Shown one piece after another: positions 1 through 9,805 of a DNA stretch of 9,864 bases. Source of the stretch: Candidatus Omnitrophota bacterium (GTDB lineage Bacteria; Omnitrophota; Gorgyraeia; Zapsychrales; Fredricksoniimonadaceae); the NCBI GenBank assembly GCA_016206745.1, contig JACQQW010000275.1, positions 1 through 9,864 on the forward strand, written 5' to 3'. The notes beneath the pieces were generated by a model. That model ran no database searches. It saw nothing but the letters and a program-made list of their open reading frames with translations, and was not told where the DNA came from. Every line of letters begins with the position of its first letter. Within the stretch, counting starts at the first letter, position 1. The position numbers and the translations under genes are program-made.

Positions 1-891
1 AATCAAGGAAATTCCAGAAAAAACCTCTGTGCCGGCCAGCGGCAAAATTGATGTCTTTTCCGCCGGCACGCAAAAAATGTTTGAGGTGATCTTCTGGTTT
101 TGGTAAAGATCCAGTTCATATTCTTTGTCAAAAATACTAAACCGGTCCTGGCTATGCTCGTAGGTCAAGAGTTTGTAATCACGCTGTTCGAAAAATGCCT
201 CCAGTTGATCCATTAAATCCGGATTGTATTCGATCATAATCGGCGGCCGGCAGGATTCAATGGTTTTAACCAGGCCCAGCAACACTTCATAATCAAAACC
301 CTCGGTATCGATTTTAATAATATCCGGTTTTAAATTCAATTCATCCAGCGGCACAATGTCCACCCTGTATTCGACAATGACAATACTTTTGCCCTTGTGC
401 CCCGGTAAATGCTGTTCTTCCATGGTCCGCCGGACAAAATCTTCGCGCAGGGACGCCGCAGTATAAATGGGAACGCCGTTATAAATAGGGATATAAAGCG
501 TCATTTGCGCGCGGACGCGGCCGGCGCCCAGGAGCATATATTCAAAACGTTTCAATCTCCGTTTTAATTTACGCAAGGCGCGCTCGTGGCAAAGGTTGGG
601 TTCCAGCGACAGGATGCGGTAATCGCTGTGCACATGGCGAAACCCGATGGCGGAAATGCCGTCATTGGCGCCGATGTCCAGGAACAACCCGTCTCCTTCA
701 TGCACCAGATGGGCAAAGCCATAATAACTTTTATCGTGCGGCAGAACAAAGGGGATGTACTGAAACAACCGGCGGCCGATAAAACCGGTGTACGGGTTGT
801 AGCGCAAAAGCCGCGGCACCGCGGCGTTCAACCGCCACAGGCGGATGATCCGCCGGCGCATGCGCCTAAAAAGTGTTCTTAAACGCTCCAT
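1..891 (-). CDS. FkbM-family SAM-dependent methyltransferase, 3' end outside the window
   Basis: The frame is open for 297 codons and runs off the left edge without a stop, so the C-terminus is missing. SAM-binding motif I is visible as LFLDIGANDG (residues 69-78). An acidic strand end, SLEP, follows at 95-98, and the FkbM hallmark IIKIDTEGFDYEVLLG lies at 191-206. The first 35 residues are strongly basic (RRMRRRIIRLWR). The family methylates oxygen atoms, often on sugars of surface polysaccharides or on polyketides; the substrate here cannot be read from sequence. The ATG at 891 overlaps the end of the preceding 73-codon gene by 26 nt, in another frame, which suggests translational coupling. 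The nearby SD is weak (AAAGG about 13 nt upstream). An internal ATG at codon 11 is an alternative start. Being downstream of a YfhO-like membrane protein supports a surface glycan or lipid role. Family assignment is firm; substrate is unknown. Confidence 0.88.
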   Translation of the reverse strand, partial: MERLRTLFRRMRRRIIRLWRLNAAVPRLLRYNPYTGFIGRRLFQYIPFVLPHDKSYYGFAHLVHEGDGLFLDIGANDGISAIGFRHVHSDYRILSLEPNLCHERALRKLKRRLKRFEYMLLGAGRVRAQMTLYIPIYNGVPIYTAASLREDFVRRTMEEQHLPGHKGKSIVIVEYRVDIVPLDELNLKPDIIKIDTEGFDYEVLLGLVKTIESCRPPIMIEYNPDLMDQLEAFFEQRDYKLLTYEHSQDRFSIFDKEYELDLYQNQKITSNIFCVPAEKTSILPLAGTEVFSGISLI

Positions 892-1087
892 GGTCCGTGC
901 CGTGCCTTTTGAGGTAGTCCCGGTACACCAGGCCGTCGCGGGGATTTTGAAAGTGGCCGTTATAAAAAATCCCCAGCAAATAACGCCCGCGCTGGCGGAA
1001 ACACTTGTCCCAATCGACACTCACCAATAAAATCAGCATGAGACCAAGGTAAAGCCAAATATTGCGGGACAAAATTTGCTTGAGCAT
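866..1087 (-). CDS. Small membrane-anchored protein of unknown function (73 aa)
   Basis: I do not recognise the family. The start is chosen by a TGATG overlap: the TGA of the YfhO-like gene (1089-1087) shares its A with this ATG (1087-1085), a usual sign of translational coupling. A modest GGAAA lies a few bases upstream. Residues 9-24 form one hydrophobic segment (NIWLYLGLMLILLVSV). The tail is polar with aromatic and basic residues (WDKCFRQRGRYLLGIFYNG at 26-44, then NPRDGLVYRDYLKR). The protein is probably anchored in the inner membrane by its N-terminus. The last 26 nt overlap the start of the FkbM-type gene. Tight packing between two plausible surface-glycan genes suggests an accessory role, which is inference. 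A longer in-frame start at 1165 exists but would overlap the upstream gene by 79 nt, so it is less likely. Confidence 0.65.
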   Translation of the reverse strand: MLKQILSRNIWLYLGLMLILLVSVDWDKCFRQRGRYLLGIFYNGHFQNPRDGLVYRDYLKRHGTDHGAFKNTF

Positions 1088-3141
1088 CAACGTTTCCAAT
1101 ATAGCATAATACCGGCGTAAACTAAAAATACAAAAAGAAATATTGCCGTCAACACATACACCCATTGCCCGCCGAACGGTTGATAACGGAATTCAACCCT
1201 GTGTTCGCCCCGCGGCACCCATACGCCTTTAAACGCGCCATTGGCTATTTGGAGCTGTTGCAGATGGCCGTCCACATAGGCATGCCAGGCCCGGGTATAG
1301 GAATCGTTGTAGACCAAGAATTTACGCTGATCGAATTTGGTTTTGAACCCTACCCGGTTGACGTCAAAATGCGCGATGTCCAAAGCGTCCGACGGGCCTG
1401 TCACGGCAATCCCGGGCGCATTGGCATCATCGTAAAGGTATACCTTATACTGCGCGTAAGCGGCCAGTTGCGCCTCGCCCAAACGCTGGGACAAAGCAAA
1501 GGCCCAGCGGGCGGCGGCCTGCGGATAGCCCACCTTGGCCGGCGCGTCGGTCATGCTCATGGCGTACCAAAAATCTTCATACGGCACGAACTGATAAATG
1601 CGGCAGGAACTCACCGCCGGAACATCCGGGCGTATCCACGCGAAAACGGGGCGCACATGGTTGGATGGTAAAACGCATTTAAACTCCCCGGCATTGGCGC
1701 TGTAAGCCGCCATCACCGCAACCGGCTGAATGACCAACAATGCCGCCAACAACCATCCCCATACGTTCATACCCCAACGGAAAAAACCTGAATAGTATAT
1801 TGCGAACAGTGCCGCGCTTAAAGCCACCGTCACAAAAGACACGGCCATCACTCCCTCAAAACGCCGTAAAAATACCATAAATGCCCCATGCATAAGCAAA
1901 ATGCCAATGACCATGGCTTTCTTGCGGCTGATGTCCGACGGGCGGATGGCCAGCAATGCCTGCAGTTGTTTTAGGCCAAATAAAATAATCAATGGAATTA
2001 AAAACGCGCCCAGGAAAAACAGATTGCGGAAATACGCGAAGAAAAATAAATGGTCATATAAAAACCGGTGCACAGGCGTCGAGTCCCCCAAGGCGATCAG
2101 CCCAATTGCGATCATCACCGCGGCCAACAAAATGTTTAACCGGTCCACCTTCAAAAAAAACGACAAAATTACCAGCACATATATCCACACCGGCACAAAA
2201 AACAATGAGTCGGAACCATAAGTGATCTTGTCCAGATGCGCGAATAAATACCCAACATCCAGCCGTTCCCCTAAGCCCCCGCTGCGGGCGATTTCCTCAT
2301 AGAGCATGCCGCCCTTCCGGTCCATGGTGCGGTCATAACATTGCTCAACGGAGGAGTATTGGCAATGCCGCCCCGGGGACACGGAATCGCCGGAGGCATC
2401 CAGCATTTTATACGCCAGCAATGGCCCGGCCGCAATGATAATACCGGCGGCGCACACCAGTGAAAGCCTTTTATGGTCCAGCACAAAACGGCCGGTGTCC
2501 TTTAAGAAATCCCAGGTGGACGAAGGACACAGCAGGACACATAAGAGGACAAACACACAAAACACTGTTAAAAAATAAAATGGCAGATAAGCGCTTACAA
2601 TAATCATCACCGATAAACAAAGCCCTAAAAAATGGCCGGTCTTTTGTTCCCGGGCAAATGACAATAAGAAATAAAAAAACCAGATCGCCGGGACGGTAAT
2701 CTCCAAAAACGTCATCTGGGTGAACATCGACAAGCCTAAGCTGGAAAACATCAAACATAAATAGGCAAGATAGGCCAGGCGCGTGTCTCTCAACAACCGT
2801 TTGGCCAGGAAATAAAAACCCGAACACCCCGCAAAAAAATACAGGACCATATAAATGATAAAAGCGATATTGTAATCGACTCCCAAAATTTTAAGCAAAG
2901 GGACCACTTGTGTGACGGGATTAAATAAATTGCAGATGGAAATAGCGTAAAACGGCCGGCCCAAGGTGACAAAAGGGTCCCACAAAGGGACTACACCGTT
3001 TAAGAGGTTATTGAAATAATATTTGGCGACACCATAAATCGTATTGGTGTCCATGTTAAGGGGAATGGCGCCGGAGACAAAATCACGCAGGAGGAACACC
3101 CACAGCAGGCAGGGGCCAAGGAATTTAAAAACGCGAAGCAT
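1087..3141 (-). CDS. YfhO-like multi-spanning membrane protein (GT-C-like)
   Basis: This is a 684-residue polytopic membrane protein. Hydrophobic segments recur from about residue 5 to 480, and a last helix lies near 660-681. The first exported loop carries NMDTNTIYGVAKYYFNN and PLWDPFVTLGRPF (residues 29-64), like the PLWNP-type loop of YfhO and related GT-C-fold proteins. A family-like STPVHRFLYDHLFFFAYFRN stretch lies at 354-373. The C-terminal domain (608-655) reads FLVYNDSYTRAWHAYVDG, then ANGAFKGVWVPRGEHRVEFRY, closely matching the beta-sandwich tail typical of YfhO proteins. In Firmicutes this family is linked to glycosylation of teichoic acids and other surface polymers, probably using polyprenyl-phosphate sugars. 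The substrate here is unknown. The ATG at 3141 has no SD, and a strong -10 element ends 5 nt before it, pointing to a leaderless message. Its stop overlaps the next start. Fold family likely; exact activity unproven. Confidence 0.8.
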   Translation of the reverse strand: MLRVFKFLGPCLLWVFLLRDFVSGAIPLNMDTNTIYGVAKYYFNNLLNGVVPLWDPFVTLGRPFYAISICNLFNPVTQVVPLLKILGVDYNIAFIIYMVLYFFAGCSGFYFLAKRLLRDTRLAYLAYLCLMFSSLGLSMFTQMTFLEITVPAIWFFYFLLSFAREQKTGHFLGLCLSVMIIVSAYLPFYFLTVFCVFVLLCVLLCPSSTWDFLKDTGRFVLDHKRLSLVCAAGIIIAAGPLLAYKMLDASGDSVSPGRHCQYSSVEQCYDRTMDRKGGMLYEEIARSGGLGERLDVGYLFAHLDKITYGSDSLFFVPVWIYVLVILSFFLKVDRLNILLAAVMIAIGLIALGDSTPVHRFLYDHLFFFAYFRNLFFLGAFLIPLIILFGLKQLQALLAIRPSDISRKKAMVIGILLMHGAFMVFLRRFEGVMAVSFVTVALSAALFAIYYSGFFRWGMNVWGWLLAALLVIQPVAVMAAYSANAGEFKCVLPSNHVRPVFAWIRPDVPAVSSCRIYQFVPYEDFWYAMSMTDAPAKVGYPQAAARWAFALSQRLGEAQLAAYAQYKVYLYDDANAPGIAVTGPSDALDIAHFDVNRVGFKTKFDQRKFLVYNDSYTRAWHAYVDGHLQQLQIANGAFKGVWVPRGEHRVEFRYQPFGGQWVYVLTAIFLFVFLVYAGIMLYWKR

Positions 3142-3174
3142 GAGGCATTATAGCATATTAACTTTACTGCTCAA
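3139..3174 (-). promoter_or_regulatory. Extended -10 promoter for the YfhO-like/FkbM unit
   Basis: On the minus strand TTGAGC (3174-3169) is separated by 16 nt from TATAAT (3152-3147), which is preceded by the extended -10 dinucleotide as TGC. The -10 is a perfect consensus and the -35 matches 4 of 6 positions. The predicted start is 3140-3141, at the ATG itself, so transcripts would be leaderless. The element sits across the final codons of the 92-residue gene and the 22-nt gap, so read-through from the upstream unit is also possible. Confidence 0.6.
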
Positions 3175-3442
3175 CTTCCACTTCTATGCCCCCGCAGGAT
3201 GGGGTAAAAAAATTATAACAAATCGCGATCAATAACCCGGACAAAAAACCCACAATGCCGTTTAAAATAGGAAACAGCAACAAAGACCAGGCGCCTAAAT
3301 GCATCAACCCTTCTTCTTCCTGGGTCCCGGCCATGGAAGCGATGGTCACAATCAATCCCAAAACAAATCCAATCACGGCATGCAGACAACTGAGCATGGT
3401 GGCAAGCGGCAATGCCCTGATTTTCAATACCTTGACCGGCAT
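3164..3442 (-). CDS. Small two-helix membrane protein (92 aa)
   Basis: Two hydrophobic segments are clear, at about residues 11-38 and 51-76. They are joined by a short acidic loop (GTQEEEGLMH). The Gly-rich helix pair and the ending CYNFFTPSCGGIEVEVE resemble small uncharacterised bacterial membrane proteins that end in a YN...GGIE.E motif, some annotated as DUF3566-like. That likeness is from memory and moderate. No catalytic residues are evident. The ATG at 3442 is set by an excellent SD, GGGAGG, four to five bases upstream. It begins 12 nt after the stop of the giant gene, so the two are probably one transcript. The promoter of the next gene overlaps its last codons. A role as a helper of the giant membrane protein is possible but only inferred from position. 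Confidence 0.75.
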   Translation of the reverse strand: MPVKVLKIRALPLATMLSCLHAVIGFVLGLIVTIASMAGTQEEEGLMHLGAWSLLLFPILNGIVGFLSGLLIAICYNFFTPSCGGIEVEVEQ

Positions 3443-3454
3443 AAGGACCTCCCA

Positions 3455-6400
3455 TCAATTTAAATGCGGTTCTCCCAGCATGGATTTCAACATCAAAGGC
3501 GTGACCGGGACAACTGCAAACACCTGCGGCACAACCCCGTCGATGGGCATGGCCAGCATGGCTTGATCATCAAACACAATGCGGTTGACCTGGTCTTCCT
3601 TGACGTCCAAATCCATTAAACGGTTGTCCATATCGATGCCGCCTTTGCGAAGCGCCGAGGCAACAGAAGCAGCATCTATGGCAACGGCCGCTAATGCCGG
3701 TTCATCGTCATTGACCGCATCATTTGACTCATTCGACAAAATTTTGTAAATCACTGCATGGGGGGACACTGAACTGGGAGTGGAGTGCACACCGGTTTCC
3801 GAATAGGTCCTTTGAGGATCATGCAATATATAATTAAACGTGGCGGTCTTGACCAACTGCACGCCCAGTTCTTTAAAAAACAACATATTGGCAAAACCAT
3901 TAACGCTGAGATTATAAATTTCCTGTTCATCCTCATTTAAATCGGCAACCGGGGCACCTGCAATATCAATGTGGTAATTGCTGGCGGATTTATTTTTAAA
4001 TGGCCCTCTGCCGAAGGTCGTGACTTCGGCCCCGCTTTTTAACCGGTTTAATCCGAAAAAGGCCCCGGTTTTAGGGAATTTTAATTGCTGCAAGGCCATG
4101 TTCGTGCTGCTGCGTTCCACCGAATACCGGCCACTGTCATCGACAAAGGTACCGGGATTATCAGGATCAGCGGGGGCATCCTGTATAAAAGAAATGGTCT
4201 GATCACCCCTGACCGACCGGAATGCCAATTTTTTAATAAAATCGCTCCTGGGATCCGCGCCCCACACATCCATGCCGGTGGAAGCCAAACTGTTGGCCAT
4301 CAGTTTCGCAAAAAAATTCTCCTGGGTTTGATGGACCATGCGTGAAGCCCCCAGAAACATGTTGGGAGGCCCCAGCCTTCCCCACAAGGGACGCCCCAGC
4401 AATGGGCGGTACACCCAGTTGGTCAATAAAAAGGGCAGCAGATATTTAATGAATACAAAATCCAGGGAACGGATTGCAAATTTAAACAGAGTATCGGGCA
4501 AACCCCCTCCAGCCCCAAAAAGGTTTGTCAACGGGCCTCCAAACAGAAAAACCCCCCATACAATTAAATCCATGATCCTGCTAATGACAAAAGACTCGCG
4601 TTGGACTTTCCCTAAATATCTTGCCCTTTCAATGATGGTGTCGTGCACGCCGCTTTCGATTTTATTACCATCCTCATCAAAACCAGACATCCGTTGGGCA
4701 TCCTTCAAAGACATGGTCCTGAATATATACGCCAACCGGTCAATTTGCCTCTGCGTCAACTTCATTCCCAATGGATTATTTTCCTGAGGATACATTTCCC
4801 GTAAATGGGCGGCCAAATAAAAAGCCATTTGCATGTGATTATACGCCAGCAATTCTTCAGAAAGCACAGGCGCTTCCAGTGGATAGAGATTGCCGATCAC
4901 AAAAGCCTGCCGGTCAAAAGGCGCATCCGGGTATAGCCCCTGGCCTGATGAGCTGTTGAGTACAGAATCGATACGGGCGGTCATCCGGAACACATTCTTC
5001 CTGCCGGCCAATTTTTCCACCACGTCTTTGGACAAGCGGCTGGGGAATGTCGCGCCTGATTTACTGACCACCAGCACCACGGTCTGCGGGTCAATGCCGT
5101 ACTTTAACGGGTCTTTGATAAATTCATTGGCATCAATAATGTCCACCGACAAACCGGGGACCAGGCGGGACAAAATAAGCTTGGTGTTCTCGCTGACCCA
5201 TAAAGAATTCTCATAACCGATAATGACCAAACGTTTTTTTTCGGAAGCTTTTAAACGCTCTGCCAAATTGGCCGCCGATTGACGGTTAAAAGAATTCTTG
5301 TCGTCCCATTGCTTCTGGGCCTCATGCAACATGTGCGCGGTCATTTCTTTTTCCTCATCCAACATCCTTGCCCGGTCCTTGTACTTTACCAACGGGGTAT
5401 AATAGCGGTTCTTTTTGCCATTCACATACTCCTGATTGGGGTATATTCTCTTATCGCGCATGTCATTGACCGCTTCCTCATCACTATGGTCCACTTCTTC
5501 CCATTTGCCTTTGCGGCGCAAGGAAGATTTGATGCTCATTCCATTGCCCGGCAGAAACGAAAAATCAACCACCTCCCCGTCTTGCAAATGCATGATGTGT
5601 GCAATCTTCTTTCCGGTCTTGGTATCGCCTTTTAGCACCCGCGGGTCCGAGGCAGAAGCCACAATGCCTTCTTTCAGGTTAAACCCTACTCCGATGTCCT
5701 GATTTCTAGAAAGATACGTCACGCCGTCATCGTCTAAGGAGGTGCGCACAAAAATGCCGTATGTCCCTTCCGCGCGCTCATAAAATTCTTTGGTAGCGGT
5801 TTCTCTATCCCCGGTAAAAAACTTGGCCACGGCCAGGTCAACAAATTCCTCGCGCGCTTTTTTGGGATCACGCCCCTGGGCTGTCCATCGTTGTTCCCAG
5901 GAACGGAACACTTCTGCGGCCCCTGTTTGAAGGCGGGCTTCCTTTTCCATTTCGTCAACCAGCATCTCTTTAAAAATTTGTATCAGCCGGTATTGAAAAC
6001 GCAAATCGGGGTTTCGGGCCAGCATTTCTTCGCTTACCCACAAATCTTTAAATGATTTCGACGGGTCATTTAAATAGGGCCTGGCTAAAAGCTGGGCCAC
6101 CTTGCCGAATACTTCATCATATTTCCGGCCGACCGCGATTTCATTTTCCTCAGACAATACGTCCTGCATAGCCTCCTGGGCGCTTGTGTGGTTTGAAAAA
6201 AGATGGGCAAAGCGCATGGAGGCGCGGGCATTGCCTAAAGTCATGTGCAGGTGGAGCTGGAACGGAAGGACCGGAGAATCACCGGGGGGCAACGCATCTT
6301 TATAATGCAGCAAACGCGGAAAAAATTCCCGCATTTGCGTCACATTGAGCATAGTGTTAAATAACCTGTACCCATTATTATCTCCATTGTGGGCGATGAT

Positions 6401-9400
6401 GACGATCACATTTCTGACGAATGATTTTAGTTCTCCCTTTACCAATCTCCAGACAGTGGTCTTCTCGGCAGGGCCCGCATGCGGATGGGCCGCTTTACGG
6501 ACCAAATCTCCCCCGGTGGCAAAGCGCACATGCGCGACCACAGTGCGGACAGCGGCTTTGCCAAAATTATATACAGGCCTGAATACCTTGGGCAGGGACC
6601 TTCTGAATTTAGAATAAACTTTGGCTGTTAAGTTCGTATAAAAACCGTTTCTGGATATTCCTCGCTTGCTTTTGACCTCTTTCTTCTCAAGCAACCGGGT
6701 CTCTCCCTGCTCATCATCATACATGGTGGCAACGCCGACTTCCTGCCCGCCGCGGAAGGTCAAATCGACCGTCGCATCCTCAAACCAATCCACCCATTCA
6801 TTGAATTTATCTAAATCTTCTTCAGCATCTTCGGTATCAGCCCGCACGGAAAGCGTCTCTAGCCCGCACCCGAATTTACAATCTTCGATGGCCTTTTGAG
6901 GATCCCAATCATGGGGCCAGGCTTCTTTCAAAATAGCCCAGATACCGGCCGCCAAAGGCCCCAGTAAAGGCATCAATGATGTTCCCCAGGTCAGGGAGCC
7001 CAGACCTATCAAGCCGGCGCCTCCCAGAACGACCGTCGTGAACAATCCCATCCTGCTTATGAACTTAGCCGCGCCGGCTTGGCCTTGGACAGGAGGAAAA
7101 TACATATGAGGAAAGAAATCCTTGGGATTTTTAAAAGGTATTAATAACCCCAGCCATTGCCCCAAGCTAAGATTCGCCCGCAAATTATTAGGTTTGAACG
7201 CGGTTGTAAATGCTTTAGGATAACGCAGAAAAGCAGGCACGGAATGGCCCATAACCTCATGTTTCCATAATCCCAACATATACCCTATCCGCGTTAAAAA
7301 CGGCAAAGCCACCGCACTTATGATCAGGGCTGCCGGAGCCAATATTCCGAATGCCACGGCCCCACCTGCAAGCGCCATACCAGATAACCATCCCCAGATA
7401 TCCATCCCGCGCAAATTCCTCGCGCTGTTATACGAAAGCCTCGCCTGCGCCACAGCGCCGCTCCCCGTATCTGAAACCACATTTATTGTTCCCCCATTTT
7501 GTTTTAGCTGTTCTAATTGTTCAATCAATTGCTGACCCTGCTGTATTTCTTGCGATGTGGCTGGTGTTACTCCAAAAGAGCCAATCACCAATCCTGGGAT
7601 AGATTGCATCGGTGGGATTACAGAATCCGGTGGAGCGGCCACACTTCCTTGGTTACTCAAAGGAGGCGGCGGTGGAGGCGGCGCTGATCCATTGCGGCTG
7701 GAATTCAATGCGGATGATGCACCTGTTCCATTTGAGCCATTCCCTTTAAATTTAAACAATGCAAAAGTGAGACCAATGCCAAAAGCAACCGCTACTGCCC
7801 CCATTCCTATCCATGAAGACCATTTGGTAATTTTATTTGCAGTTAATGTAGCAGTATTTGTGCTGGGTGTAGATGTTGTTGGATTCTGCAGATGCGCCCC
7901 GGGTGTCATAGTTACTTTAGATAATGAGGGTGGTGCCGGAGGTTGTACAGCAGGAGCGTTCTGCGCGGCCCGATTTATGACCGGTTCTGCCTGCTGAACA
8001 GTTTCCATCGCTTTAGGGGAAACTGCGGGCATTTCAAATTTATCCCCGACTTTTATCCAATGCACGCTCTTGTCCACATTGCCCTGGACCCTCTTTACCG
8101 GGACCTTTTTTTCCATTCCATATTCACCCCAGAGTTCTCCTTTATAAGGAGACGTCCTGTGTCCATCCGGGTCAAGTTGTTCAAACATGTTACTGATACC
8201 GGCAAGCATATGCCCGTATGTCCTGTCATCCTTTGTCACCTCCACAATCATCTTTCCATTGTCCCCCGGTTTCAAACTATAACTCTCCGCATTACTGGCC
8301 CCCAATGAACTGAAACCCGCGACCGCCAACATACCAATAAGAAGTACTTTAGCTAAAAATCCCCTGAACTTTTTAGAGACCACCCTTTTATCCAGAACGC
8401 CAAGTATTGCCTTGTCATTAGTGGGAGATAAATTGACCACAGCCATGGCCAAATCCGATCCAAAAGACAATCGGCCCGCCAATAATGCCCAGTCCGTTTG
8501 TTCTTTGTAAAGCTCGCTTCCGACTTTTCCAAATGCCGTAAAATCCATGCCCCCGGACACATACTTGCGCGGGGTCACTTTCTGGGTAAAGGGATCATAG
8601 TCTTCCTTGATATAATTATAAACGTGCTTTTTAAACGCCTGTAAATACCGGTTGAATATTTTTTCTTTGACCGTCTTATCATCGACGTCCACCCCCGCCA
8701 CTTTATTTTTTCCGACATACATTCTCCCAAGCAGGCTGTCATGCAAATGGCGTTTATACCATGTGGCTAAAATCATCGCGTCGTAAACCTGGCGGACAAC
8801 AGCAAAGTTCTTGCCTTCATTGACCTCTTTGCGCAAGACCGGGATGAGGATTTCGCGGGCGACTTGGGAACCTAGGGCATTGGTATTTCTAAGCGTACCA
8901 CCCCGCTGCAATTTCTCTAAATATTGTTCGGATTTATCTGTGGAAATTGCTGGGGGCCATGCGCTCTTTCTATAATTCTGACTGAGCGCATGGTAATCCT
9001 CTTCCAACTTCACATCCAACTCACTGCGCGCCACAAAAGCGCTGCCGCCCCTGACATACACTTCCGCGGATTTGGGCACAATCCATACCTTATTAAAGGT
9101 ATTGACCGGAATATCCGTAGTCCCATATTTTTCATAGGCCTTTTGGTATATCTTTTGCCAAAAATTTTGCCCCACTGTTCGTTCAGGATAAGTCAAGGAA
9201 GCGGCGATTTGTTTAAGCAAATAATCCTGTTCCAGCAAATCTTTGCCCATTTGGGTGGTCCCAAAGCCCTCTGGGGCAATGCGGTCTTTTTCATACGGGG
9301 ACAAATTGACCCATAAATCAGTTTCCGGGACCGTCAGGCAGGTCAAAAAATACTTGGTCAAACGGGTGATTTCATCCTTTAAAGGCTGTCCCAAAAGCCT

Positions 9401-9622
9401 CGCATCCCCTTTGTCAACCAAAAAATCAAAACGCATAGGATTTTTAGAGTTAGATTGAATCCCTTTTAATTGCAAAGGCTTATATCCATAACTTGTATTG
9501 ACCATCATGCCCGGCGCAGGCAAATTAATGACCGTTTGAGCTTGAGATTGAGAGGGGAACGCAGAAGAAATAAAAAAAGTTATTAAAATAACCCAGACAA
9601 TGCTGTTGCGGGCCATGGCCAT
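3455..9622 (-). CDS. Giant exported membrane protein with GlmS-like class II amidotransferase and SIS domains (2,055 aa)
   Basis: One uninterrupted frame encodes, in order: signal peptide (1-28, ending SQSQA/Q); N-terminal Omnitrophota-type module (29-408); internal signal-like hydrophobic segment (about 413-445); weak LysM-like region (446-533); Pro/Thr linker; membrane helix (601-624); seven prolines (648-654); Gln-rich helix; membrane segments (742-783 and 858-900); class II glutamine amidotransferase (919-1363); SIS domain (1463-1613); membrane hairpin (about 1676-1740); and a C-terminal GGID module (1990-2048). GlmS makes glucosamine-6-phosphate from fructose-6-phosphate and glutamine. 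Here the second SIS domain is not clear and the usual GlmS tail (D-P-R-x-L-A-K-S-V-T-V-E) is absent, so ordinary GlmS activity is doubtful. I chose the ATG at 9622 because GGAGG lies 6 nt upstream and the signal peptide starts there. An in-frame ATG at 9733 would add 37 residues encoded by the leader hairpins. Function unknown; probably amino-sugar or envelope related. Confidence 0.85.
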   Translation of the reverse strand: MAMARNSIVWVILITFFISSAFPSQSQAQTVINLPAPGMMVNTSYGYKPLQLKGIQSNSKNPMRFDFLVDKGDARLLGQPLKDEITRLTKYFLTCLTVPETDLWVNLSPYEKDRIAPEGFGTTQMGKDLLEQDYLLKQIAASLTYPERTVGQNFWQKIYQKAYEKYGTTDIPVNTFNKVWIVPKSAEVYVRGGSAFVARSELDVKLEEDYHALSQNYRKSAWPPAISTDKSEQYLEKLQRGGTLRNTNALGSQVAREILIPVLRKEVNEGKNFAVVRQVYDAMILATWYKRHLHDSLLGRMYVGKNKVAGVDVDDKTVKEKIFNRYLQAFKKHVYNYIKEDYDPFTQKVTPRKYVSGGMDFTAFGKVGSELYKEQTDWALLAGRLSFGSDLAMAVVNLSPTNDKAILGVLDKRVVSKKFRGFLAKVLLIGMLAVAGFSSLGASNAESYSLKPGDNGKMIVEVTKDDRTYGHMLAGISNMFEQLDPDGHRTSPYKGELWGEYGMEKKVPVKRVQGNVDKSVHWIKVGDKFEMPAVSPKAMETVQQAEPVINRAAQNAPAVQPPAPPSLSKVTMTPGAHLQNPTTSTPSTNTATLTANKITKWSSWIGMGAVAVAFGIGLTFALFKFKGNGSNGTGASSALNSSRNGSAPPPPPPPLSNQGSVAAPPDSVIPPMQSIPGLVIGSFGVTPATSQEIQQGQQLIEQLEQLKQNGGTINVVSDTGSGAVAQARLSYNSARNLRGMDIWGWLSGMALAGGAVAFGILAPAALIISAVALPFLTRIGYMLGLWKHEVMGHSVPAFLRYPKAFTTAFKPNNLRANLSLGQWLGLLIPFKNPKDFFPHMYFPPVQGQAGAAKFISRMGLFTTVVLGGAGLIGLGSLTWGTSLMPLLGPLAAGIWAILKEAWPHDWDPQKAIEDCKFGCGLETLSVRADTEDAEEDLDKFNEWVDWFEDATVDLTFRGGQEVGVATMYDDEQGETRLLEKKEVKSKRGISRNGFYTNLTAKVYSKFRRSLPKVFRPVYNFGKAAVRTVVAHVRFATGGDLVRKAAHPHAGPAEKTTVWRLVKGELKSFVRNVIVIIAHNGDNNGYRLFNTMLNVTQMREFFPRLLHYKDALPPGDSPVLPFQLHLHMTLGNARASMRFAHLFSNHTSAQEAMQDVLSEENEIAVGRKYDEVFGKVAQLLARPYLNDPSKSFKDLWVSEEMLARNPDLRFQYRLIQIFKEMLVDEMEKEARLQTGAAEVFRSWEQRWTAQGRDPKKAREEFVDLAVAKFFTGDRETATKEFYERAEGTYGIFVRTSLDDDGVTYLSRNQDIGVGFNLKEGIVASASDPRVLKGDTKTGKKIAHIMHLQDGEVVDFSFLPGNGMSIKSSLRRKGKWEEVDHSDEEAVNDMRDKRIYPNQEYVNGKKNRYYTPLVKYKDRARMLDEEKEMTAHMLHEAQKQWDDKNSFNRQSAANLAERLKASEKKRLVIIGYENSLWVSENTKLILSRLVPGLSVDIIDANEFIKDPLKYGIDPQTVVLVVSKSGATFPSRLSKDVVEKLAGRKNVFRMTARIDSVLNSSSGQGLYPDAPFDRQAFVIGNLYPLEAPVLSEELLAYNHMQMAFYLAAHLREMYPQENNPLGMKLTQRQIDRLAYIFRTMSLKDAQRMSGFDEDGNKIESGVHDTIIERARYLGKVQRESFVISRIMDLIVWGVFLFGGPLTNLFGAGGGLPDTLFKFAIRSLDFVFIKYLLPFLLTNWVYRPLLGRPLWGRLGPPNMFLGASRMVHQTQENFFAKLMANSLASTGMDVWGADPRSDFIKKLAFRSVRGDQTISFIQDAPADPDNPGTFVDDSGRYSVERSSTNMALQQLKFPKTGAFFGLNRLKSGAEVTTFGRGPFKNKSASNYHIDIAGAPVADLNEDEQEIYNLSVNGFANMLFFKELGVQLVKTATFNYILHDPQRTYSETGVHSTPSSVSPHAVIYKILSNESNDAVNDDEPALAAVAIDAASVASALRKGGIDMDNRLMDLDVKEDQVNRIVFDDQAMLAMPIDGVVPQVFAVVPVTPLMLKSMLGEPHLN
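3479..3655 (-). other. C-terminal GGID module
   Basis: Residues 1990-2048 read ASALRKGGIDMDNRLMDLDV, then an acidic stretch and IDGVVPQVFAVVPVTPL. From memory, a GGID(F/L)...(G)FVPVI...I.P(V/M)T tail of this kind ends many large Omnitrophota proteins and pairs with the same N-terminal module seen here. It may be a sorting or secretion tail; no function is known to me. Confidence 0.55.
4403..4597 (-). other. Membrane hairpin following the SIS domain
   Basis: Residues about 1676-1740 hold two hydrophobic stretches, ISRIMDLIVWGVFLFGGPL and FVFIKYLLPFLLTNWVY, separated by a Gly-rich loop (LFGAGGGLPD). In GlmS this is where the second SIS domain would begin. Together with the helices before the amidotransferase domain, it would tether both ends of the enzyme-like part to the membrane. 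Confidence 0.6.
4784..5236 (-). other. SIS (sugar isomerase) domain inside the giant protein
   Basis: Residues 1463-1613. A Rossmann-like start, KRLVIIGYENSLWVSENTK, is followed by VDIIDANEF and the phosphosugar-binding loop VVLVVSKSGATFPS (1515-1528; GlmS has LSQSGETADT). A later helix, NHMQMAFYLAAHLREMY, matches the fold end. The Ser-x-Ser-Gly core is kept, but Glu of GET is Ala and the GTS loop is altered to GYENS. Phosphosugar binding is plausible; isomerase or synthase chemistry is uncertain. Confidence 0.7.
5534..6868 (-). other. Class II (Ntn) glutamine amidotransferase domain inside the giant protein
   Basis: Residues 919-1363. The candidate nucleophile is Cys919 in FGCGLETLSVRA. The family arginine block appears as HVRFATGGD (1031-1039; GlmS has HTRWATHG). 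The AHPH block is at 1045-1048, and the oxyanion residues are in IIAHNGDNNGYR (Asn1079, Gly1080). The closing strands are GTYGIFVRTSLDDD (1286-1299) and GIVASASDPRVL (1319-1330). Order and content match the glutaminase half of GlmS, which releases ammonia from glutamine. The domain is about 445 residues instead of roughly 240, from insertions after the Cys strand, between AHPH and HNG, and a helical block near 1130-1280. Class II enzymes need the Cys as free N-terminus, so cleavage before Cys919 is expected if it is active. Confidence 0.8.
8024..8287 (-). other. Possible divergent LysM-like region
   Basis: Residues 446-533 follow the internal signal-like segment. They open with YSLKPGDNGKMIVEV and close with VHWIKVGDKFEMPA, recalling the Y.V..GDTL start and PGQ.L.IP end of LysM peptidoglycan-binding repeats. 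The middle is longer than one LysM (about 44 residues) and lacks a clear core, so the match is weak. If real, it would place this part in the periplasm near the wall. Confidence 0.3.
8288..8386 (-). other. Internal signal-peptide-like segment
   Basis: Residues 413-445 of the giant protein show the three-part layout of a signal peptide. There is a basic stretch (KRVVSKKFRGFLAK), a hydrophobic core (VLLIGMLAVAGFSSLG) and a small-residue end (ASNA followed by ES). Being internal, it may act as a membrane anchor, be cleaved, or be a leftover from gene fusion. Confidence 0.55.
8399..9538 (-). other. N-terminal module typical of Omnitrophota exported proteins
   Basis: This covers residues 29-408 of the giant protein, just after the signal peptide. 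Visible blocks are LPAPGMMV (34-41), RFDFLVDKGD (64-73), DLWVNLSPYEKDRIAPEGFG (102-121), GTTDIPVNTFNKVWIVP (167-183), KVAGVDVDDKTVKEKIF (307-323), YNYIKEDYDP (335-344) and RKYVSGGMDF (352-361). From memory the same blocks, in the same order, open many otherwise unrelated large predicted proteins in Omnitrophota genomes. It is mostly helical, with few cysteines and no recognisable catalytic motif. It probably acts outside the cytoplasm, perhaps as a sorting or assembly domain; that role is a guess. Confidence 0.7.
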
Positions 9623-9628
9623 ATCCGT

Positions 9629-9633
9629 CCTCC
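9629..9633 (-). promoter_or_regulatory. Shine-Dalgarno site of the giant gene
   Basis: GGAGG lies 6 nt before the ATG at 9622 and directly precedes the signal peptide start. It decides this start over the in-frame ATG at 9733, which has only a weak GGA upstream. Confidence 0.85.
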
Positions 9634-9635
9634 GG

Positions 9636-9681
9636 AAAAAATAAAGCCCAATCATTTCCCGGCTTTGGGAAATAATTGGGC
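9636..9681 (-). terminator. Leader hairpin T2 with U-tract (intrinsic terminator-like)
   Basis: On the minus strand a 15-base arm GCCCAATTATTTCCC pairs with GGGAAATGATTGGGC across the 6-nt loop AAAGCC, all Watson-Crick except one U-G. It is followed by TTTATTTTTT (9645-9636). The tract ends two bases before the GGAGG site, so termination here would stop expression of the giant gene. The opposite strand also has a stem, but no T-tract follows it. Confidence 0.8.
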
Positions 9682-9694
9682 GTCGTCGTCCAAT

Positions 9695-9730
9695 AAAAAA
9701 CCCAATGTCTCTCACCTGAGAATCATTGGG
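9695..9730 (-). terminator. Leader hairpin T1 with U-tract (intrinsic terminator-like)
   Basis: CCCAATG (9730-9724) pairs with CATTGGG (9707-9701). The inner TCTC/GAGA stem carries an AGGT loop and a 2x2 internal loop separates the two stems. A run of six T follows (9700-9695). It lies about 40 nt after the predicted transcription start and 14 nt before T2. Confidence 0.75.
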
Positions 9731-9749
9731 CATCTATGTCCAAATTGCG

Positions 9750-9767
9750 CCTGACAACTTTGCCAGG
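9750..9767 (-). promoter_or_regulatory. 5' stem-loop of the leader RNA
   Basis: CCTGGCA pairs with TGTCAGG through a 4-nt AAGT loop, with one G-U pair. It would begin about 3 nt after the predicted start at 9770. It could protect the 5' end or form part of a sensor. Confidence 0.45.
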
Positions 9768-9776
9768 AACAATGAT

Positions 9777-9805
9777 AGTATAAACCAAAATATGCGCCTT
9801 GTCAA
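9777..9805 (-). promoter_or_regulatory. Sigma70-type promoter upstream of the giant gene
   Basis: TTGACA (9805-9800) is a perfect -35. A 17-nt spacer separates it from TATACT (9782-9777), a 5 of 6 match to the -10. The predicted start is a G at 9770. No better promoter was seen nearer the gene, so both terminator-like hairpins fall inside the leader. Confidence 0.8.

What the first reader, a model, noticed from the sequence alone, without database searches (positions are those of the whole stretch)
9623..9805. Consensus promoter followed by two tandem terminators, then the RBS of the giant gene
A strong TTGACA-N17-TATACT promoter predicts a start at 9770. Within 135 nt two hairpins with U-tracts follow, and only then GGAGG and the ATG. 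As drawn, most transcripts should stop before the gene, so read-through must be controlled (attenuation or an unrecognised riboswitch), or the main product is a small RNA of about 75 to 135 nt. I do not recognise a known riboswitch class. Doubling the terminator implies tight repression of a very costly 2,055-residue protein.
Basis: partly seen in the sequence, partly recalled or inferred. Interest (0 to 1): 0.75.

Follow-up and report, generated by a model that had tools for sequence, protein, structure and literature searches.

The report
Double nitrogen antiterminator before giant gene
Ahead of a gene for a 2,055-residue protein in an uncultured bacterium, likely an Omnitrophota, lie a near-consensus promoter sequence and two terminator-type hairpins, each sharing an arm with a small hairpin of a kind that also precedes ammonium, nitrite and glutamine genes in its relatives, so the gene is likely switched on under nitrogen shortage by an ANTAR protein predicted to hold the small hairpins and block both stops.

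Summary
In detail: on the minus strand a TTGACA-17-TATACT promoter is followed by terminators T1 and T2, GGAGG and the ATG at 9622. Hexaloops with A1 and G4, one overlapping a terminator, define ANTAR antiterminator targets. All 11 giant-gene leaders found carry this design, 10 with two units. A covariance model of the unit, run on 384 phylum genomes, finds 58 leader places in the window's order; of 42 not used to build it, 38 have a nitrogen gene (amtB, glnA, nirB and others) as first recognised downstream gene. Two lie in the window's own genome. A GAF-GAF-ANTAR protein is encoded in 40 of 47 genomes searched, but not found in the window's own 69%-complete assembly. The giant protein contains a predicted glucosamine-6-phosphate-synthase-type glutaminase plus SIS domain. 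Best reading: the giant gene belongs to an ANTAR nitrogen regulon, gated by two attenuators in series. New member of a known kind, with a new sort of target. No binding or expression data.

The parts
9777..9805 (-). sigma-70-type promoter, TTGACA (9805-9800), 17 nt, TATACT (9782-9777); predicted start near 9770
9747..9770 (-). P1: recruitment-type hairpin, core CCUGGC-AAAGUU-GUCAGG (9767-9750), loop 9761-9756
9726..9743 (-). P2: UUGGAC-AUAGAU-GCCCAA, loop 9737-9732, A.C mismatch beside the closing C-G; alternative to T1
9695..9731 (-). T1: terminator-type hairpin 9731-9700 with U tract 9700-9695
9676..9694 (-). P3: AUUGGAC-GACGAC-GCCCAA(U), loop 9687-9682 (G at position 1, G at position 4); alternative to T2
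9636..9681 (-). T2: terminator-type hairpin 9681-9646 with U-rich tract 9645-9636
9629..9633 (-). ribosome-binding site GGAGG
3455..9622 (-). giant gene, 2,055 codons plus stop; N-terminal 360-residue family domain, C-terminal enzyme-like part
4523..6910 (-). residues 905-1700: predicted class-II glutaminase plus SIS domain (glucosamine-6-phosphate-synthase-type fold); Cys919 in the Cys1 position

Best explanation
The leader is likely a double ANTAR-controlled transcription attenuator: a promoter-like sequence is followed by hexaloop hairpin P1 and by two units in which a hexaloop hairpin (P2, P3) shares an arm with a terminator-type hairpin (T1, T2), so an ANTAR protein would have to stabilise both small hairpins before RNA polymerase could reach the giant gene. 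Shown by sequence and comparison: this anatomy; its presence in 11 giant-gene leaders; the hexaloop rule (position 4 G, position 1 A or G, closing C-G); covariation of P1 and of the terminator stems; the same leader class before amtB, glutamine synthetase, nirB, nitrate-transport-like, nitrate-reductase-like and ANTAR genes in the same order, with two more in the window's own genome; and a GAF-GAF-ANTAR gene in most relatives. Inferred: that this ANTAR protein binds the window's RNA; that binding is the on state, as for EutV, NasR and AmiR; that the GAF domains report nitrogen shortage; that P1 recruits the protein and P2, then P3, are its successive antitermination sites; and that two stops in series keep a costly protein tightly off.
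For: Eight giant genes with a GlmS-like part and their own 5' flank (window included: G000, G001, G007, G008, G011, G016, G029, G035) carry the leader; G036 has it before a two-giant operon, and G041 and G032 before an N-terminal part at a contig end. The unit pattern, written from 7 of these leaders, gives 31 hits in 23 of 81 order genomes (11 hits are in those 7 leaders, 20 new), reversed control 3 hits. Best hexaloop hairpin upstream of P2 has position 1 A/G and position 4 G in 16 of 22 leaders (shuffle mean 2.5, maximum 8 of 500 rounds) and in 29 of 42 others (mean 4.9, maximum 13). P1 covariation score 0.646 against 0.319 shuffled, terminator 0.587 against 0.223, 0 of 500 shuffles as high in each. 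Covariance model: 58 leader places in the order, 48 with a nitrogen gene as first recognised downstream gene, 6 giant, 4 unknown; of 42 not used in the model 38 nitrogen, 4 unknown (gene names). ANTAR gene on the same strand within 5.1 kb at 12 of 58; in G041 the order is ANTAR gene, tandem leader, giant gene. ANTAR domain over cut-off in 40 of 47 genomes, 0 of 14 controls; GAF-GAF-ANTAR in 4 of 4 scanned. Folding along the transcript: P1, then P2, then T1 replaces P2.
Against: No ANTAR gene in the window's own assembly, which is 69% complete; 6 other genomes of 47 also lack a match. P2 shows no convincing covariation: its core letters were fixed by my pattern or do not vary, so its pairing rests on the hexaloop rule. 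P3 has G, not A, at loop position 1; in EutV a change there weakened the response. The window's second unit has no P1 of its own and its loop lies 50 nt after that of P2; a 20-nt longer linker abolished EutV antitermination, so P3 leans on the single-hexaloop binding reported for EutV. G016 has one unit only. 6 of 22 and 13 of 42 leaders fail the P1 loop test. No expression, binding or ligand data.
Confidence: 0.87

Rival explanations
1. A riboswitch of an undescribed class senses a nitrogen metabolite directly and needs no protein.
For: Tandem units upstream of nitrogen genes could be small aptamers with expression platforms; no ANTAR gene seen in the own assembly.
Against: The conserved core is a simple stem with the ANTAR hexaloop rule, P1 follows the same rule, ANTAR genes lie beside leaders, and no Rfam riboswitch reaches gathering score.
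Confidence: 0.04
2. Another RNA-binding antiterminator (for instance of the BglG/SacY kind) uses the leader.
For: A sub-threshold match to bglG-cis-reg (18.1 bits, E 0.63).
Against: That match is far below its gathering score of 80; the hexaloop rule and the gene set fit ANTAR. BglG-type proteins in these genomes were not searched for.
Confidence: 0.04
3. The main product is a small RNA of about 76 or 135 nt, with the giant gene fed only by leakage.
For: Strong promoter sequence followed by two terminators.
Against: The leaders stay attached to particular genes across genera, with an RBS and start codon directly after T2; the loop rule explains the conserved letters.
Confidence: 0.03
4. Attenuation by translation of a short leader peptide.
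For: An in-frame ATG at 9733 exists, and a similar extension in G032.
Against: The sequence between the units varies freely and I saw no shared short ORF in the leaders read; this was not tested systematically.
Confidence: 0.02

Closest known systems
EutV-controlled eut leaders of Enterococcus faecalis (ANTAR dual-hexaloop antiterminators; PMC3369931, PMC8934654, passages read)
   Same: Hexaloops with A1 and G4, conserved closing pair, P2 arm shared with an intrinsic terminator, short P1-P2 linker.
   Different: EutV is a receiver-ANTAR phosphoprotein; the candidate here is GAF-GAF-ANTAR. In the window one P1 serves two hexaloop-terminator units in one leader.
NasR / nasF leader of Klebsiella oxytoca
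   Same: ANTAR antitermination in nitrate assimilation; here nirB and a nitrate-reductase-like operon carry the leader.
   Different: Here a scattered set of genes, including amtB, glnA and a giant gene. I compared no nasF sequence; what I say of it is from passages of PMC3369931 and the listing of PMC7496416.
ANTAR nitrogen regulons predicted in Desulfotomaculum acetoxidans and Pelobacter carbinolicus (PMC3369931, section 10 read)
   Same: ANTAR attenuators before PII, ammonium transporter, nitrite reductase, nitrogenase and glutamine synthetase genes; 13 attenuators in six transcription units in one genome.
   Different: Other phyla; no giant-protein target is named in that section.
Glucosamine-6-phosphate synthase (GlmS / GFAT), for the giant protein
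   Different: Part of a 2,055-residue protein; 11-19% identity in the structural matches; the Cys is internal; GlmS curated score far from met.

Membership tests
ANTAR target RNA (antiterminator) | Two hairpins with hexanucleotide loops and stems of at least 3 pairs | tested here: met
   P1 and P2 in the window; P2's core has 5 pairs and one A.C mismatch
ANTAR target RNA (antiterminator) | A at position 1 and G at position 4 of each loop | tested here: met
   P1 AAAGUU and P2 AUAGAU fit; the extra hairpin P3 GACGAC has G at position 1. In 13 units found by protein homology G4 in 13, A1 in 10, G1 in 3; in 42 model-found leaders A1 39, G1 3, G4 42, the model itself favouring G4
ANTAR target RNA (antiterminator) | Linker between the two hairpins 5-12 nt (eut) or 2-25 nt (actinobacteria) | tested here: met
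   6 nt between 6-pair cores in the window, 6-16 nt in the 7 leaders measured; does not hold for P2 to P3
ANTAR target RNA (antiterminator) | Second hairpin overlaps and excludes an intrinsic terminator | tested here: met
   GCCCAA is shared by P2/T1 and by P3/T2; termination itself not measured
ANTAR target RNA (antiterminator) | Genome encodes an ANTAR-domain protein | tested here: inconclusive
   40 of 47 genomes yes, among them G001, G007, G008, G011, G016, G032, G035, G041; own 69%-complete assembly no
ANTAR target RNA (antiterminator) | Bound by an ANTAR protein, binding relieves termination | not testable with these tools
   needs RNA-binding and transcription assays
Known Rfam riboswitch or leader families | Covariance-model match at gathering score | tested here: not met
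   0 matches in the window and in 17 related loci; weak matches only
Glucosamine-6-phosphate synthase fold (giant protein, residues 905-1700) | Class-II glutaminase fold with Cys nucleophile position, followed by a SIS domain | tested here: met
   predicted fold only, no activity shown
GlmS family by sequence | Curated family score | tested here: not met
   NCBIfam glmS 24.5 bits, cut-off 418; profile search of PDB sequences no match at E 0.01

The most novel reading that the evidence does not exclude
Nitrogen starvation licenses a giant exported glutamine-handling protein in Omnitrophota: a GAF-GAF-ANTAR sensor opens two RNA stops in series, making the giant protein part of the cell's nitrogen-foraging programme and giving the giant proteins of this uncultured phylum a first mapped control switch.
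Probability: 0.35. Interest if true: 0.75.

Novelty: new member of a known kind. Interest (0 to 1): 0.58.

Why it matters
Giant ORFs are common in Omnitrophota and their roles are poorly understood; PMC10066038 (passages read) links those over 20 kb to attachment or predation. Finding one large family member under the same RNA switch as ammonium, nitrite and glutamine genes gives a testable clue to its function: nitrogen acquisition or amino-sugar metabolism. It also outlines an ANTAR nitrogen regulon in this phylum, with serial attenuators in one leader, and a compact motif for finding further targets in uncultured genomes. My paper searches (listings) showed no report on ANTAR control in Omnitrophota; only 15 of 34 matching papers were listed, and 'antar' also matches 'Antarctic'.

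Tried and rejected
Leader shared by all paralogues of the N-terminal domain: rejected. Of 30 loci taken up, 23 had readable upstream sequence; the leader was seen at two, the window and G008:C158. In the own genome the covariance model finds no giant leader besides the window's. DNA search of the leader in the own genome gave only short weak matches.

Rfam: no family at gathering score; bglG-cis-reg at 18.1 bits is far below its cut-off of 80.

The idea that the A.C mismatch beside the closing pair is a required wobble: dropped. In 42 leaders not used to build the model that pair is G-C 15, G.U 12, A-U 10, A.C 5. A.C is typical of giant units and of many nirB units; it should weaken P2 against its terminator.

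P2 covariation was looked for and not found. Misses of the P1 loop test: 6 of 22 and 13 of 42; G073 was skipped at a contig end. P1 hairpins were picked by eye in 20 of 23 leaders; none was picked in G027, G015 and G073. Of the 20, the four with a bulge (G001, G016, G007, G029) were left out of the 16-row covariation alignment.

Likely false hits: G044:C123, and G040:C35 before ATP-synthase-like genes (by eye). Of 12 model hits outside the order, 6 have AmtB, PII or GlnA among the next four ORFs and 6 do not.

A genome-contig scan with the giant protein found no relative; a second, with the ANTAR alignment, gave 64 loci. Sequence search of the PDB with the giant's C-terminal part gave one weak match of no meaning and none by profile. 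In the VIA-align list only 50 entries are shown; families not listed are not excluded.

Full report
Observation. The minus strand of the window reads TTGACA-17-TATACT (9805-9777), a leader with two terminator-type hairpins, GGAGG, and ATG at 9622. The leader is more stable than all 200 dinucleotide shuffles. The gene has 2,055 codons.

What the leader is made of. Folded at successive lengths, P1 is formed by 24 nt, P2 is present from 44 to 64 nt, and T1 replaces P2 by 72 nt. Alone, P2 is -2.7, T1 -16.8, P3 -4.8 and T2 -25.8 kcal/mol. Each weak small hairpin can form first and loses to its terminator unless something holds it. Loops are AAAGUU (P1), AUAGAU (P2) and GACGAC (P3), all closed by C-G.

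Conservation. The closest giant homologues were found by protein search, not by the leader. The leaders of six of them share promoter, P1 and one or two P2-terminator units, although the C-terminal parts are only about 30-36% identical. With four more found by pattern or context, 11 giant-gene leaders are known, the window included; 10 have two units, G016 one. The pattern, written from seven leaders, gave 31 hits in 23 of 81 order genomes; 11 of these hits are in the seven leaders themselves and 20 are new. The reversed control gave 3 hits.

Hexaloop test. I took the best hexaloop hairpin of any sequence in the 70 nt upstream of P2. Loop position 1 is A or G and position 4 is G in 16 of 22 leaders (A1/G4 in 12); 500 shuffle rounds give 2.5 on average, at most 8. 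In 42 further leaders the count is 29 (A1/G4 in 16), shuffles 4.9, at most 13. Leaders are related, so they are not independent draws. P1 pairs covary in 16 rows (0.646 against 0.319 shuffled, 0 of 500 as high), and so does the terminator stem in 37 units, part of whose letters the pattern had fixed (0.587 against 0.223, 0 of 500). P2 shows no convincing covariation.

Regulon. A covariance model of 37 units was run on 384 genomes drawn from the phylum: 52 have a match at E 0.001, 40 in the window's order and 12 outside. I read the context of 58 leader places in the order, one per contig (further hits on the same contig not counted apart), and of all 12 outside. Each place was labelled by the first of the next four ORFs that matched a reference set made of nitrogen, ANTAR and giant proteins. 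In the order, 48 of 58 are nitrogen genes: ammonium transporter 25, nirB 12 (one at a contig end, by eye), glutamine synthetase 5, MobA-like 2, nirD-like 1, nrtA-like 1, an operon resembling nitrate reductase 1, and the ANTAR gene itself 1 (followed by an ammonium transporter). Six are giants (two by eye) and 4 matched nothing. Of the 42 places not used to build the model, 38 are nitrogen genes. No formal base rate was computed. Representatives were named with NCBIfam and Pfam: nirB 834.7 and 812.4 bits (cut-off 578), amt 476 (343), GlnA 655 (429), nifH 451 (394), and GSIII_N for the long glutamine synthetase. nirD lies at its cut-off (72.2 and 76.7 against 74.65); PII, MobA-like, nrtA-like and nitrate-reductase-like proteins stay below the NCBIfam cut-offs.

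Own genome. Besides the window, G000 has model hits before nirB (C230:460-516) and before the nitrate-reductase-like operon (C13:2575-2631).

The candidate regulator. ANTAR domains over the cut-off occur in 40 of 47 genomes, in one copy in all but two of these, and in none of 14 control genomes. Four of four proteins scanned are GAF-GAF-ANTAR. The gene lies on the same strand within 5.1 kb of 12 of 58 leader places; some stretches had been cut longer because I knew an ANTAR gene to be near. In G041 it directly precedes the tandem leader of the giant gene, in G049 that of nirB. It was not found in the window's 69%-complete assembly. Its GAF domains match PtsP and NifA models below cut-off, which makes a nitrogen signal plausible, not shown.

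Organism. Of 64 loci encoding relatives of the ANTAR protein, 56 record titles name Omnitrophota or Omnitrophica, and P0015, a giant homologue of the same lengths as the G041 gene and contig, is named from an Omnitrophica bacterium. So the phylum is inferred by kinship.

Known background. PMC3369931 (abstract, passages, section 10 in full) defines the ANTAR target as two hairpins with hexaloops, A1 and G4, a linker and an overlapping terminator, and predicts nitrogen regulons in other phyla. PMC8934654 (passages) reports that EutV binds isolated hexaloops and redefines the minimal site as one hexaloop, which could explain a second unit without its own P1. PMC8164766 (passages) gives a linker of 2-25 nt.

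Mechanism, steps marked. Transcription starts near 9770 (predicted). Without active ANTAR, T1 and then T2 stop it (predicted from structure). Under a nitrogen signal (inferred) an ANTAR dimer is recruited at P1, holds P2 and then P3, and polymerase passes both stops (inferred from EutV). Two gates in series would multiply repression of a costly gene.

Verdict. New member of a known kind. Serial units in one leader and a giant enzyme-like target are the new aspects.

Noticed in passing
window 6866-6868 (residue 919): The glutaminase-type Cys is internal in the giant protein and nearly invariant in the 22 aligned sequences; class-II glutaminases use it as N-terminal residue (recalled), so processing before Cys919 may be needed.
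   Followed up: partly
window 8528-9619; own-genome matches: The 360-residue N-terminal domain has 22 matched stretches in the own genome, some of them pieces of one gene, fused to different C-terminal parts: a large paralogous family; the giant protein as a whole has no Pfam match.
   Followed up: partly
P0027: A 1,620-residue protein from a eukaryote transcriptome set (mmetsp) aligns over 98% of the giant's residues 940-1800 at 22% identity.
   Followed up: no
L199 (G070:C25) and L202 (G046:C161): The leader class precedes an ORF of unknown kind, an ammonium transporter, PII and nifH-like genes, suggesting ANTAR-linked nitrogen fixation.
   Followed up: partly
L069, L071, L146 between the two units: Three giant leaders carry a further hexaloop hairpin (AAUGUU, ACGGAA, ACAGAA) before the second unit, i.e. 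a complete second P1-P2-terminator module.
   Followed up: partly
window 9733-9622: An in-frame ATG at 9733 opens the giant frame inside the leader; a similar in-frame extension is seen in G032. Possibly chance.
   Followed up: no
window 1-3442: After the giant gene on the same strand: a 92-aa ORF, a 684-aa hydrophobic ORF without NCBIfam match, and an FkbM-family methyltransferase.
   Followed up: no
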